Source: Fidelibacterota bacterium
Lineage (GTDB): Bacteria > Fidelibacterota > Marinisomatia > Marinisomatales > UBA1611
Reading direction: 5' to 3'
Assembly: GCA_028338895.1 (NCBI GenBank)
Contig: JAOLAV010000009.1
Location: 1-34,004 of the forward strand
Length of the DNA: 34,004 bases
Made by a program: the position numbers and the translations under genes
The notes under the pieces: generated by a model
Databases searched by the model: none
The model's input: the letters and a program-made list of their open reading frames with translations, nothing else
What the model was told of the DNA's origin: nothing
Part shown: positions 1 to 5,764 of the stretch, one piece after another
How positions within the stretch are numbered: the first letter of the stretch is position 1
Layout of the letters: each line of letters begins with the position of its first letter

Positions 1-565
1 TACCTCTTATCCAACTCAAGACCGCTTCTAAAACAGAAACTTCACCTTTATGTTCCATTGAAATTGTTTCTAAAAACCCATGAAGCGCGTGTTTTGAAGC
101 AACATAACCAGAGTGGTTGGGAAAACCCATTATCGCTTGAGCCGTTGAACAACTAACAATTTTACCGTTTGTTTTTTTTAAAAATGGAATAGCGACATGG
201 CAACAATTAACAGCACCCATATAATTTGTGTTAATTAAGTCATAAAAAAAACTAATGTCGTCAATATCCTCAAATTTTGCCCACATGCTAATACCTGCAT
301 TTAAAATTAAGGAATCAATTCTACCAAACTCATTTATTGTTTGATCAATCATATTTTTACATTGATCTATTTTGGTTATATCAGTTTTTACAGCTATAGA
401 TCGACCACCAGAAGAATTAATAAAACTTGAAACTCTTTGGATTTCTTCTAATCTCCTTGCTGCACAAACGACTATTGAACCATTAATTGATAATTGTTTA
501 CATAGCTCTTCTCCAATTCCAGAAGAGGCTCCAGTTACAATAAAGACTTTATCCTTAAGAAGCAT
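1..565 (-). CDS. SDR-family oxidoreductase, 3' part cut by left window edge; candidate acyl/alkyl-DHAP reductase from context
   Basis: Reverse-strand reading from ATG at 565: MLLKDKVFIVTGASSGIGEELCKQLS...DSLILNAGIS...NTNYMGAVNCCHVAIPFLKKTNGKIVSCSTAQAIMGFPNHSGYVASKHALHGF. Contains TGxxxGIG, NAG and S/YxxxK motifs. Not in ORF track because it is incomplete. Confidence 0.88.
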   Translation of the reverse strand, partial: MLLKDKVFIVTGASSGIGEELCKQLSINGSIVVCAARRLEEIQRVSSFINSSGGRSIAVKTDITKIDQCKNMIDQTINEFGRIDSLILNAGISMWAKFEDIDDISFFYDLINTNYMGAVNCCHVAIPFLKKTNGKIVSCSTAQAIMGFPNHSGYVASKHALHGFLETISMEHKGEVSVLEAVLSWIRG

Positions 566-583
566 ATATAATGATTTTTAAAA

Positions 584-2341
584 CTATTTTTTAACTATAT
601 TATTATTTACACCAAATATGTTATCAGGGTCTTGGGCTTTTTTTATACCTTGAATCATACTTATACTGCCCTTAGAGATGGTTTTGACCATAAAATCTTT
701 TCTTAGTTTCCCCACTCCATGATGATGGGATATAGAGCCACCATTTTTTATAAAATTTTCTCTCAGAGCATACTCAATTTCGGTAAAAACATCTTCAGGG
801 TTTTCTACCCCATCAAAGCACATTGCGATGGTGTTATACATACAAACACCGGTATGATATATTTTTGATATTCTAGATGTGAAAAAAGGTTTACCAGGTA
901 AATTATAATTTTTATGAAGTTTAATTAGAAGTTTATAGGCCTCACTTTTTACTTGATTTATGTTTGACCAGGGAACGGATGTTTCCATTGTTTCACCCAA
1001 AATATTTTGGGTGAAAATAAGCTCTCTTATATATGCAATTACCATGGTTGCTAAATACCCACTTTTACCGGTACTCTCCCCAGCGATAAAACCTTTATGT
1101 TTTTTTGCTAAAGACTTTAAGTTTTCTAATTGGTGTTTTACTTCTAAATCAGATCCTTCAACCTTAAATGTAGCTGCGGTGAATTTTTCTGGATCAAACC
1201 CTTTTATATTAAAAATAAAATATTTTTGCAATTTATCTAACGTACCAGAAAAGCCTTCTTTCTCTTCTTTTAGAGCGCTACCAAATCGTATTTGAAGATT
1301 ATCGGCTAACCGAGCACTAGCGGGAACCATATTAGATTGAAAGAGGTCTTGCATAAAACTCACACCCTTTTCCCAATCATGAAAAATGATAGATTCATAA
1401 GCTGACTTTTTTGGTAGAGGATGTATTTTCAGTGTTGCTTTTGTTATTAAACCAAGGTTTCCCTCGGATCCAAAAAGTATATTTTGAGTTTTTATTCCGA
1501 TTGATGCTCTTGTTAAGGGTTTTATTTGGTTAATGACACCAGAAGGTGTAATCATTGTTATATTTTGGACTATATCTTCAATATTTCCATATTTATGTTT
1601 TTTCATTCCAGCAGCATTGGTAGATATCCACCCACCAACTGTCGAAAACTCGTAACTATCTGGTTCATGTCCCGCAGTAAAACCAGCTTTATTTAACCCT
1701 TCTTCAAGTTTTTTTCCAGTTATTCCAGCTTGCACTGAAGCCATTAGGTTTTTTTTATCAATTGATTCAATTTTGTTCATTCTTCTAGTATCAACGGAAA
1801 CGATCATTCTCTTCTCTTCCTCTGGTACCCTTAAAGCGTTTGTTACGTTTGTACCACCTCCGTATGGTATAAGGCAAACATTATGTTTTTTTGCAAGATC
1901 AATTAATTGTATCGCCTCCTCTTCATCTTCAACATAGAAAACTAAATCTGTAAAGTTTTTAAGTTTATTATATAAAACCTTATATACTTCATCTGTTGAG
2001 TGTTGTCCATGGCTATGTAAGAGTCTTTCATTATCTGTAAAAGTATATCTATCTTCTTCAAATAAAGATTTCAGCTCATCAATAAAGTCATTATTTGTAT
2101 TATATTGCTCAATATATTTTCTTTCTAACTCTTGAACTTTTGGTTTTATATCAAATTCAACTCCCAGAGCTTCTTCTACGAACGGAATAAATTTTGTTAG
2201 TTTTTTACCACAAACAGGATATCTGTTTCCTGTAAATGTTACAGATTTATCATCGTTTACAATAAAATTAGAGTCACGATACCCCCACTTATGTCCCCAG
2301 TTTTCACTATTTACACCAAAAAACTTTTTGTTTTCACTCAT
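584..2341 (-). CDS. Alkyldihydroxyacetonephosphate synthase (AGPS)-like FAD-dependent enzyme; start probably MSENKK at 2341 rather than 2377
   Basis: PYGGGTNVTNAL FAD-binding motif, GHEPDSYEFSTVGGWISTNAAGMKKHKYGNIEDIV, GYLATMVIAYIREL...LGETMETSVPW and GGSISHHHGVGKLRKDFM, all closely resembling eukaryotic AGPS. The 12-aa longer ORF start lies inside the upstream acyltransferase gene. Confidence 0.9.
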   Translation of the reverse strand: MSENKKFFGVNSENWGHKWGYRDSNFIVNDDKSVTFTGNRYPVCGKKLTKFIPFVEEALGVEFDIKPKVQELERKYIEQYNTNNDFIDELKSLFEEDRYTFTDNERLLHSHGQHSTDEVYKVLYNKLKNFTDLVFYVEDEEEAIQLIDLAKKHNVCLIPYGGGTNVTNALRVPEEEKRMIVSVDTRRMNKIESIDKKNLMASVQAGITGKKLEEGLNKAGFTAGHEPDSYEFSTVGGWISTNAAGMKKHKYGNIEDIVQNITMITPSGVINQIKPLTRASIGIKTQNILFGSEGNLGLITKATLKIHPLPKKSAYESIIFHDWEKGVSFMQDLFQSNMVPASARLADNLQIRFGSALKEEKEGFSGTLDKLQKYFIFNIKGFDPEKFTAATFKVEGSDLEVKHQLENLKSLAKKHKGFIAGESTGKSGYLATMVIAYIRELIFTQNILGETMETSVPWSNINQVKSEAYKLLIKLHKNYNLPGKPFFTSRISKIYHTGVCMYNTIAMCFDGVENPEDVFTEIEYALRENFIKNGGSISHHHGVGKLRKDFMVKTISKGSISMIQGIKKAQDPDNIFGVNNNIVKK

Positions 2342-3062
2342 ATAGGAACTCCGCTTTTTCTTTAATCCTCTGTTCAAGTTCTAGGGTCATACCTTTGATC
2401 GCTTTACTTACTTCTTCATTCGTTGGGCTTTCTGTTTTTATAAAAGAACTAGGATAAATTGGTTCAAGAATGTATACACAAATCTTACCTGGCTGCATAA
2501 GAAATTTATCTTTTGGCCATGCTCTATGAGAACCAAAAATAACAGCAGGAACAATAGGCTTATTTAAGTTAATTGAAAACGTTGATGCTCCTCTTTTAAA
2601 GGGAGTAATCTCACCCGGTTTTCCTCGGGTACCTTCTGGGAAGAAGATTAAACATCTTTTGTTATAATTCATAAACGACTTACATAGTGTTAATGTATCT
2701 TTGATTGGAAAACTTCGAACACCATCTATTTTCCTATCAATAGGTATCAAGTTCATAACAGTATTAATTAAATTTCTTTTGAACCAACTATCAAACCAGT
2801 AATCCTTTGCCGCAAGCATTCCAAAGTGATTAAAGCTTTTTTGAGCAGAGGCAGATAATAAAGCAACATCCATATGGCTATTGTGATTACTGCAAAAAAT
2901 ATATGATGATTCAGGAAGGTTTTCTCTTCCAAAAACTTTTAAAGGAGTATAAAAAGTAAAGACAATTTTACTATAAATGTAAAATAAGATTTTCCATATT
3001 TTAAAATAAAAAGGTTGATTCCCCAATAAGTATTTAAATTTGGGGTTTTGGAGGACATCCAT
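2334..3062 (-). CDS. 1-acylglycerol-3-phosphate acyltransferase (PlsC-family) domain protein
   Basis: HX4D motif (NHNSHMD) and FPEGTRGKPGEITPFKRGA motif; stop overlaps the AGPS start by 8 nt. Confidence 0.9.
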   Translation of the reverse strand: MDVLQNPKFKYLLGNQPFYFKIWKILFYIYSKIVFTFYTPLKVFGRENLPESSYIFCSNHNSHMDVALLSASAQKSFNHFGMLAAKDYWFDSWFKRNLINTVMNLIPIDRKIDGVRSFPIKDTLTLCKSFMNYNKRCLIFFPEGTRGKPGEITPFKRGASTFSINLNKPIVPAVIFGSHRAWPKDKFLMQPGKICVYILEPIYPSSFIKTESPTNEEVSKAIKGMTLELEQRIKEKAEFLYE

Positions 3063-3070
3063 ATAGGATG

Positions 3071-4231
3071 TTATTTTCTACCATATTTCATGTGTGCGTC
3101 TGTCCATGTATGAGAACCTATTGCACATATTAGAGATATTTCAAGAGCTAGAGCAGCTCCAGCTATAATTTCTGCTAATTTTCTTGAAGAGTATTCCCCA
3201 CCATTACAACCAAGTAATTCTAAGTTTTTATTTTGCATTTTTAATCGAGTTCCTCCACCTACAGTCCCAACGGTTAACGATGGAAGAGTTAATTTAAACT
3301 TTAAGGCATCTTCTCTTTTTTCAAGTCCAATATGAGCGATGCTGTTTTCAGCTACACATGCAGCGTCTTGACCCGTTGCAAGATATATAGCTGTAAGAGC
3401 ATTTGAAACATGAAGACCATTACCATGAGTACCAGCCATACTAGATACAATAGGAAAAAAACTCCAGCAATCAAAAAGTATATCTGGATCCATTTTTAAG
3501 ACTCTTCTCATTACACTATTTTTGATAGTTGTTTCTGCTGTAACGGCATGACCTCTTCCGAGAAGCATATTTCGTACGGATGCTTTTTTATCACTATTGA
3601 GGTTTGATTCTAAAATATAGTTTTGATTTGTTTTTTCTTGAATAAACTCACAAGCTACTTTTGCTGCGAGTGTCACCATATTCTGACCAGCAGCGTTACT
3701 TGTATCTAAAACAATATCGAGAATAACATAATTCTGAACTGTGTACTGGTCTATTCTTAAAACTTTACCATGATTTGTAGTGCTCTCAGCAACATCCATA
3801 ATACTTTTTTCATTTTCTTTTACCCAATTTTGAAATTTGACACTTTCATCAATATTATCAAAAATAAACACAGGAGCTCTGGAGAGTTCTTGTCTAAAAT
3901 GTCTTACAATCGTTCCGCCGCTAATACTAGAGGCATAGATACCACGATTCATAGACATGGCGAGTGTCCCTTCAAGCGTACACAATGGAATACAAAACTC
4001 CCCTTTTGCGTAAGTCCCATCTAATAGTAGTGGTCCAACCACCGCCATTGGTACTTGCATAAACCCAACATGGTTTTCAATAATTCCTTGAAGATCTTCT
4101 ACATCATCTCGAAGAGAATCATTTAATTCTATTCCAGAAAACTGTTTAACCCATTTTTTACGAGCAGTTGTATCCTCGTGTGTGTACCCTCTAGGTATAG
4201 ATGTATTACGTTCATTGTTTTGATCAGACAT
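3071..4231 (-). CDS. HMG-CoA reductase-fold protein, divergent
   Basis: ENHVGFMQVPMAVVGPLLLDG, CTLEGTL (catalytic Glu), NSDKKAS (Lys), TGQDAACVAENS (Asp), LPSLTVGTVGGGTRL, DAHMKYGRK (His). The SRFARL and GDAMGMNM motifs are altered. Confidence 0.85.
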   Translation of the reverse strand: MSDQNNERNTSIPRGYTHEDTTARKKWVKQFSGIELNDSLRDDVEDLQGIIENHVGFMQVPMAVVGPLLLDGTYAKGEFCIPLCTLEGTLAMSMNRGIYASSISGGTIVRHFRQELSRAPVFIFDNIDESVKFQNWVKENEKSIMDVAESTTNHGKVLRIDQYTVQNYVILDIVLDTSNAAGQNMVTLAAKVACEFIQEKTNQNYILESNLNSDKKASVRNMLLGRGHAVTAETTIKNSVMRRVLKMDPDILFDCWSFFPIVSSMAGTHGNGLHVSNALTAIYLATGQDAACVAENSIAHIGLEKREDALKFKLTLPSLTVGTVGGGTRLKMQNKNLELLGCNGGEYSSRKLAEIIAGAALALEISLICAIGSHTWTDAHMKYGRK

Positions 4232-4634: not shown

Positions 4635-4870
4635 TAAAAGCCTGGAAAACTATTGGTCATTGCGCCACCTGTACAGCTAAAGTAAAACCTGTTCCACAAC
4701 TAAAAACCCCACAGCAAGACCAGACTAAGTGGCTATGGTCTTGGCCTGCTTTGGAAAAAACCAACTTTTCAATATCAAGAGTTGTTCGGGTTTTTACTAT
4801 TCCAAAAACATCCTCTTTTACATTGGTCTTGTTTTCACCAATAAAAGACTCACTTTTAGAGGCTTTTATT

Positions 4871-5764
4871 TTATTCTCCAGTTTCAGGGTCAAAGGTATT
4901 TGGCTTTTTTCTAACTCTTTCTCCAGTTTCAGGGTCAAAAGTCTCGAATTCTTCACCTAGAATACTATTTTGGTCATGTGATTTATACTGATGATTGATC
5001 TTTGTAGGCGCTGGAAGCGGTGTAAATATCTCTTTTTTACTTTGAATTGGTATAAATTCATTAACACCAAAACCAATTGAGACTAATGGTTGATACTCAC
5101 TATTATAGTTTTCATAAAAATATGTATTTTTACTATTAGGGTTTATATTTAAAATTTCATTTTTTATAAGGGAAACATCTACTTGTAGCACAATAGACCC
5201 GTTTTTCATCAAGCTATTATATTCTTCATACCCAAATGATATTCCTGCTCCATGTGTATTAAATTTATATTTTATCTGATCAGGTATTAATCTATACCCT
5301 CTTGTATAAAGAGTATGAAAACCAATATAAAAAGGGAATTTATCGTTTTCAGAAGTACCTGTTTTAATAGATTGGATTGAATGTAAAACATGACTACCAG
5401 AATTGCTTAAGGTTGTTTCGACGTTTATACCCGCTTTCAGAGGTGATTTACTGTTTATGTTTATATATTTCCTATGTTCTAATCCTATAAAAGACCCTAG
5501 TTGATCACCATTAGGATCAATTATTCCCAAACCACCATAAACACCAGATTCACTCTTTTGGTGGCCCTTTAAAAAAGAAAACTCAGTACGTAAACCAGAA
5601 ACCCAATGGGCTTCTCCACCCATTGGAAGGGAGGCATTAAGAGAAAAAACTTTTTCACCTTTATCTAATATTTTTTGCGTTCGTATATGTGCGTTATTAT
5701 GACAACCTGCGATAAAAAAAAGACTTAACGTAATAAATAAACATCGTTTATGAAGGTGAAGAAT
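4871..5764 (-). CDS. Lipoprotein with C-terminal FDPETGE repeats; possible pseudogene (no ATG start, frameshifted 3' end)
   Basis: ORF track 4871..5623. The same frame stays open upstream and reads ...KRCLFITLSLFFIAGC^HNNAHIRTQKILDKGEKVFSLNASLPMGGEAHW, a type II signal peptide with IAGC lipobox. Exact start is uncertain (ATT 5764 is the guess). Confidence 0.5.
   Translation of the reverse strand: MLHLHKRCLFITLSLFFIAGCHNNAHIRTQKILDKGEKVFSLNASLPMGGEAHWVSGLRTEFSFLKGHQKSESGVYGGLGIIDPNGDQLGSFIGLEHRKYININSKSPLKAGINVETTLSNSGSHVLHSIQSIKTGTSENDKFPFYIGFHTLYTRGYRLIPDQIKYKFNTHGAGISFGYEEYNSLMKNGSIVLQVDVSLIKNEILNINPNSKNTYFYENYNSEYQPLVSIGFGVNEFIPIQSKKEIFTPLPAPTKINHQYKSHDQNSILGEEFETFDPETGERVRKKPNTFDPETGE
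4874..4939 (-). repeat. Two in-frame 21-nt direct repeats encoding FDPETGE, 45 nt apart
   Basis: ttctccagtttcagggtcaaa at 4874-4894 and again at 4919-4939 (reverse complement TTTGACCCTGAAACTGGAGAA). Confidence 0.9.

What the first reader, a model, noticed from the sequence alone, without database searches (positions are those of the whole stretch)
3071..4231. Divergent HMG-CoA reductase that keeps the catalytic quartet but loses the HMG-binding motif: possible repurposed acyl-CoA-to-alcohol reductase
By manual alignment to class I HMGR from memory, catalytic Glu (CTLEG), Lys (SDKKAS), Asp (TGQDAA) and His (DAHMKYGRK) are retained. The TSRFARL segment, whose Arg contacts the HMG carboxylate, reads TTNHGKVL; GDAMGMNM reads SNAAGQNM; TRGPVV reads SRAPVF. 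HMGR chemistry is a four-electron reduction of a CoA thioester to a primary alcohol, the same reaction type needed to make the fatty alcohol for AGPS. Hypothesis: this protein supplies the alcohol substrate rather than mevalonate. Alternative: a true HMGR feeding an isoprenoid alcohol into the ether linkage.
Basis: partly seen in the sequence, partly recalled or inferred. Interest (0 to 1): 0.8.

Follow-up and report, generated by a model that had tools for sequence, protein, structure and literature searches.

The report
HMG-CoA-reductase-like fatty alcohol maker for ether lipids
This bacterial gene looks like the cholesterol-pathway enzyme HMG-CoA reductase, but it most likely turns fatty acids into fatty alcohols so that three neighbouring genes can build ether-linked membrane lipids; the enzyme type (FcrA) was described in 2025, and what is added here is strong evidence for a conserved four-gene ether-lipid cassette.

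Summary
Window 3071-4231 (minus strand) encodes a 386-aa class I HMG-CoA-reductase fold with Glu87, Lys215, Asp289 and His380 intact. The informative changes are Ser684->Glu208, Lys735->Phe259 and Leu862->Trp376. These match FcrA, a fatty acyl-CoA reductase shown biochemically in 2025 to make fatty alcohols and not to reduce HMG-CoA (PMC11948995). The phylum has no detectable HMG-CoA synthase or wax synthase (0/245 genomes each), and the family uses the MEP pathway. The gene heads a cassette (FcrA, PlsC acyltransferase, AGPS, SDR) found in all 52 FcrA genomes of the phylum wherever contigs allow, and in several other phyla. In one relative a classical fatty acyl-CoA reductase sits in exactly the FcrA position; it is the only such gene above cut-off in 245 genomes. 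Best reading: FcrA makes the fatty alcohol that AGPS puts into alkyl-ether lipids. The enzyme kind is known and the ether-lipid role had only been suggested; the cassette and the enzyme swap make it testable.

The parts
3071..4231 (-). FcrA-type fatty acyl-CoA reductase (class I HMGR fold), 386 aa, first gene of the cassette
   Evidence: Pfam PF00368 E 9.2e-100; catalytic and pocket residues; fold; tree
2334..3062 (-). PlsC-family acyltransferase, 242 aa; proposed dihydroxyacetone-phosphate acyltransferase (substrate inferred)
   Evidence: Pfam Acyltransferase E 7.3e-19; best PDB 5kym 1-acyl-G3P acyltransferase; starts 9 bases after the FcrA gene
584..2341 (-). Alkylglycerone (alkyl-DHAP) phosphate synthase, AGPS, 585 aa from the ATG at 2341; overlaps the end of the PlsC gene
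   Evidence: Best PDB 4bby peroxisomal AGPS, 453.9 bits over residues 15-580, next non-AGPS family 92 bits; SHHHGVGKLR motif retained, and the Tyr that is Phe in entry 4bca retained
1..565 (-). Short-chain dehydrogenase/reductase, N-terminal 188 aa, cut by the window edge; proposed acyl/alkyl-DHAP reductase (substrate inferred)
   Evidence: SDR matches in PDB; conserved as fourth gene in relatives

Best explanation
The protein is an FcrA-type fatty acyl-CoA reductase: it uses the HMG-CoA reductase fold and catalytic residues to reduce a long-chain acyl-CoA by four electrons (probably with NADPH) to a primary fatty alcohol. It is the first gene of a four-gene alkyl-ether lipid cassette. The PlsC-like enzyme acylates DHAP, FcrA makes the fatty alcohol, AGPS swaps the acyl group of acyl-DHAP for that alcohol to form the ether bond, and the SDR reduces alkyl-DHAP to alkyl-glycerol-3-phosphate, which enters phospholipid synthesis. 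Shown here: gene content, residues, clade, cassette conservation, missing HMG-CoA synthase and wax synthase, and the swap with a classical reductase. Inferred: substrates, chain length, cofactor and pathway flux.
For: Catalytic quartet kept; S684->E208, K735->F259, L862->W376, as described for FcrA. FcrA of Ca. [quoted passage not shown]). HMG-CoA synthase 0/33 in the family and 0/245 in the phylum; IspG 30/33, including the window's own genome, and IspH 29/33. Wax synthase 0/245. PlsC and AGPS follow FcrA in 51 of 52 FcrA genomes, the exception being a contig break; SDR in 47, the other five at contig ends. All 52 FcrA genomes hold cassette-type AGPS; only two AGPS genomes lack FcrA: G026, where AGPS is cut by the contig end, and G193, where the slot holds a classical reductase (NAD_binding_4 219 bits, Sterile 54 bits, best PDB fatty acyl-CoA reductase 7eoz 257.5 bits). 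The Sterile domain is above cut-off in no other of 245 genomes. The cassette recurs in Ignavibacteria, Calditrichota, KSB1, Planctomycetota, Verrucomicrobiota and others, while the gene upstream varies (30 clusters in 71 loci).
Against: No activity measured. The expressed FcrA (P. breve) and the N. pharaonis FcrA carry an N-terminal lipid-carrier domain that this protein lacks, and their sequences could not be fetched, so clade membership with them was not tested directly. PlsC and SDR substrates are assigned by context. Three Planctomycetota-labelled FcrA-like loci (L200, L204, L205) show no cassette nearby, so some relatives may serve another pathway. The swap rests on one genome.
Confidence: 0.9

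Rival explanations
1. A true HMG-CoA reductase making mevalonate for isoprenoids, possibly for an isoprenoid ether lipid.
For: Overall fold and catalytic quartet; PcrB-type prenylglyceryl-phosphate synthase genes exist in 26/33 genomes of the family.
Against: No HMG-CoA synthase in 245 genomes; MEP genes present; HMG-pocket Ser684 and Lys735 replaced by acidic and mostly uncharged residues; PcrB occurs in family members with and without this gene, so it does not depend on it.
Confidence: 0.02
2. A reductase of a different thioester, for example acyl-ACP, a hydroxylated, branched or dicarboxylic acyl-CoA, or one that stops at the aldehyde, still feeding the AGPS step or a vinyl-ether variant.
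For: The residue at the Lys735 position varies across the clade (F, G, Y, L, S), which may reflect different chains; K692 is Asn in one sub-clade.
Against: The assayed FcrA acts on acyl-CoA of C14 and longer and does not reduce a C16:1 aldehyde; AGPS uses an alcohol; the swap is with an alcohol-forming type of reductase.
Confidence: 0.06
3. Fatty alcohols made here go to wax esters, as proposed for halophilic archaea.
For: FcrA was described in wax ester synthesis (PMC11948995).
Against: Wax synthase model TIGR02946 finds nothing in 245 genomes of the phylum; tight linkage to AGPS instead.
Confidence: 0.02

Closest known systems
FcrA, HMGR-related fatty acyl-CoA reductase (Grossi et al. 2025, PMC11948995)
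   Same: Class I HMGR fold, same catalytic quartet, acidic residue at S684, non-Lys at K735 (printed there as Lys795, apparently K735), bulky aromatic at L862; found in genomes without the mevalonate pathway.
   Different: No N-terminal lipid-carrier or ACP domain here; no wax synthase in the phylum; tied to an AGPS ether-lipid cassette, a role that paper only suggested.
Myxococcus xanthus MXAN_1676-1674 operon (PMC9131029) and the mammalian FAR1-GNPAT-AGPS-reductase pathway
   Same: Same set of four functions: alcohol-forming reductase, acyltransferase, AGPS, reductase.
   Different: There the reductase is FAR1-like, in M. xanthus fused to the acyltransferase; here it is an unrelated HMGR-fold enzyme. 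G193 shows the classical reductase in the same cassette.
Class I HMG-CoA reductase (human, Methanothermococcus 6hr7)
   Same: Fold, catalytic residues, R590 equivalent.
   Different: HMG-carboxylate pocket residues changed; no HMG-CoA synthase in the phylum.

Membership tests
FcrA fatty acyl-CoA reductase | HMGR fold with catalytic Glu, Lys, Asp, His | tested here: met
FcrA fatty acyl-CoA reductase | Acidic residue at S684, no Lys at K735, bulky residue at L862 | tested here: met
   E208, F259, W376
FcrA fatty acyl-CoA reductase | Genome lacks other mevalonate pathway enzymes | tested here: met
   HMG-CoA synthase 0/33 and 0/245; IspG present in the own genome. Own genome is only 55% complete, and mevalonate kinases were not searched
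FcrA fatty acyl-CoA reductase | Branches with characterised FcrA, apart from canonical HMGR | tested here: inconclusive
   Cassette proteins form a 100/100 clade apart from human, plant, archaeal and Streptomyces HMGR; characterised FcrA sequences could not be fetched
FcrA fatty acyl-CoA reductase | Reduces long-chain acyl-CoA and not HMG-CoA | not testable with these tools
   needs enzyme assay
Canonical class I HMG-CoA reductase | HMG-carboxylate contacts S684 and K735 | tested here: not met
   E208 and F259
Canonical class I HMG-CoA reductase | Works with HMG-CoA synthase | tested here: not met
   0/245 genomes
AGPS (neighbour, 584-2341) | Full-length match to alkyl-DHAP synthase with HHHGVGK motif and the conserved Tyr | tested here: met
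   453.9 bits to 4bby

The most novel reading that the evidence does not exclude
A complete, mobile four-gene alkyl-ether lipid pathway, spread across many bacterial phyla, uses an HMGR-fold enzyme as its alcohol-forming reductase; ether lipid synthesis, not wax synthesis, may be the main or original role of this FcrA branch.
Probability: 0.6. Interest if true: 0.65.

Novelty: new member of a known kind. Interest (0 to 1): 0.5.

Why it matters
Many bacterial genes annotated as HMG-CoA reductase are probably mis-annotated. This case shows how to tell them apart, names the likely source of fatty alcohol for AGPS in uncultured marine bacteria, and gives a compact cassette plus a natural enzyme swap with which bacterial ether-lipid synthesis can be tested directly in a laboratory host.

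Tried and rejected
True HMGR: rejected on missing HMG-CoA synthase and pocket residues. Wax esters: rejected, no wax synthase. Arg loss in TSRFARL as the key change: rejected, that position varies and R590 is kept. A search of Ignavibacteria genomes for AGPS failed on a handle rule. Plasmid HMGR-like hits (L206-L210) include distant relatives with long branches and were used only as tree context. The promoter scan found no excess of promoter-like sites over shuffles. The structure model is a monomer, so pocket length at the subunit interface could not be judged.

Full report
What is there. The finding's coordinates hold an intact 386-aa reading frame on the minus strand. It matches Pfam HMG-CoA_red over its whole length (334.6 bits) and is closest in the PDB to the Methanothermococcus HMG-CoA reductase 6hr7 (247.9 bits). 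An AlphaFold2 model (pLDDT 86.7, pTM 0.89) finds HMG-CoA reductases as its best PDB matches. The NCBI model for true NADPH HMGR gives 280.5 bits against a cut-off of 441.8.

Residues. Numbering was anchored on human E559 using the sequence printed. The catalytic quartet is intact (E87, K215, D289, H380). Human R590 is in TRGP, and its equivalent R118 is present in all 52 family members. TSRFARL holds R627, which is N here but N, K, Q or R in relatives. The changes that set the family apart are S684 to Glu (47) or Asp (5), K735 to Gly, Phe, Tyr, Leu or others, and L862 to Phe or Trp. These are the three positions that Grossi et al. 2025 give as distinguishing FcrA from HMGR (PMC11948995); the paper prints Lys795, which appears to mean K735, since human position 795 is Cys in the numbering used here.

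What FcrA does. In that paper FcrA of Ca. Promineifilum breve produced C16 alcohol in E. coli, used NADPH, did not reduce HMG-CoA and was not inhibited by simvastatin. The authors suggested, without testing, that some FcrA feed ether lipid synthesis. A literature search for FcrA found no other paper on this enzyme in the held library. AGPS homologues had been reported in Marinisomatota from the Black Sea, without mention of this reductase (PMC11868695).

Genome context. The window's genome is a 55%-complete member of Marinisomatota (phylum inferred from the record titles of close relatives). It has one PF00368 gene and an IspG gene. In its family 21 of 33 genomes have the gene, none has HMG-CoA synthase, and 29-30 of 33 have MEP genes. 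In the phylum 53 of 245 genomes have a PF00368 match. One of these, G055, is a class II type: its ORF shows no BLAST match to the window protein and lies next to a kinase-like gene. HMG-CoA synthase and wax synthase are absent in all 245.

The cassette. In all 52 FcrA genomes the order FcrA, PlsC, AGPS, SDR on one strand holds wherever the contig is long enough. The AGPS is well supported by its match to solved peroxisomal AGPS (453.9 bits). Cassette-type AGPS occurs in 54 genomes and FcrA in 52, all shared (Fisher p about 2e-51; genomes are related, so the number overstates independence). The gene upstream of FcrA differs between groups (30 clusters among 71 loci), so the cassette is the conserved unit. 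A scan of GTDB genomes returned 80 loci, and 76 carry at least one partner gene next to FcrA, including Ignavibacteria, Calditrichota, KSB1, Planctomycetota, Verrucomicrobiota, Gammaproteobacteria including Legionellales (different gene order), and a Spirochaetaceae genome (AGPS only). In several of these groups the AGPS is only about 30% identical to the window's, yet the order is the same. HMG-CoA synthase is not found in 21 of 24 of these other genomes; matches occur in the two Legionellales and the Spirochaetaceae genome.

The swap. Genome G193 has PlsC, AGPS and SDR in the same order but no FcrA. In its place, overlapping the PlsC start, lies a 563-aa protein with NAD_binding_4 and Sterile domains, whose best PDB match is fatty acyl-CoA reductase 7eoz. 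The Sterile domain is above cut-off in no other genome of the phylum. This is what one expects if FcrA and the classical reductase do the same job. The M. xanthus MXAN_1676-1674 operon has the same functions with a FAR1-like domain (PMC9131029).

Phylogeny. A 42-row tree places all cassette proteins and their close relatives in one clade (100/100), apart from human, plant, archaeal and Streptomyces mevalonate-cluster HMGR. The characterised FcrA sequences could not be fetched, so their joining this clade is inferred from residues.

Conclusion. The protein is most likely FcrA making fatty alcohol for AGPS. Substrate, chain length and cofactor remain to be measured.

Noticed in passing
L212, L213, L214, L215 (genomes G057, G157, G033, G036): A second AGPS-like protein (about 30% identical) is followed by a GlpD-like FAD protein (judged by its N-terminal sequence), with no FcrA nearby; a different ether-lipid or glycerol-phosphate arrangement.
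   Followed up: no
L064:8722-12078: G055 has a class II-type HMGR ORF of 758 aa next to a mevalonate-kinase-like gene, but no PF08540 HMG-CoA synthase was found in that genome.
   Followed up: partly
loci L128-L159 against window 584-2341: Two AGPS subtypes (about 50-100% and about 30% identical to the window's) occupy the same cassette slot in different phyla, suggesting in-place replacement.
   Followed up: partly
genomes of the window's family: PcrB-type prenylglyceryl-phosphate synthase genes are present in 26 of 33 genomes, with or without FcrA.
   Followed up: no
L206, L208, L210 (Alteromonas, Vibrio, Sinorhizobium plasmids): Other proteins annotated as HMG-CoA reductase with altered pocket residues in unrelated gene contexts, including a Sinorhizobium one among acyl-CoA carboxylase genes.
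   Followed up: no
window 4870-4940: The stretch CTCCAGTTTCAGGGTCAAA occurs twice within about 50 bases upstream of the cassette.
   Followed up: no
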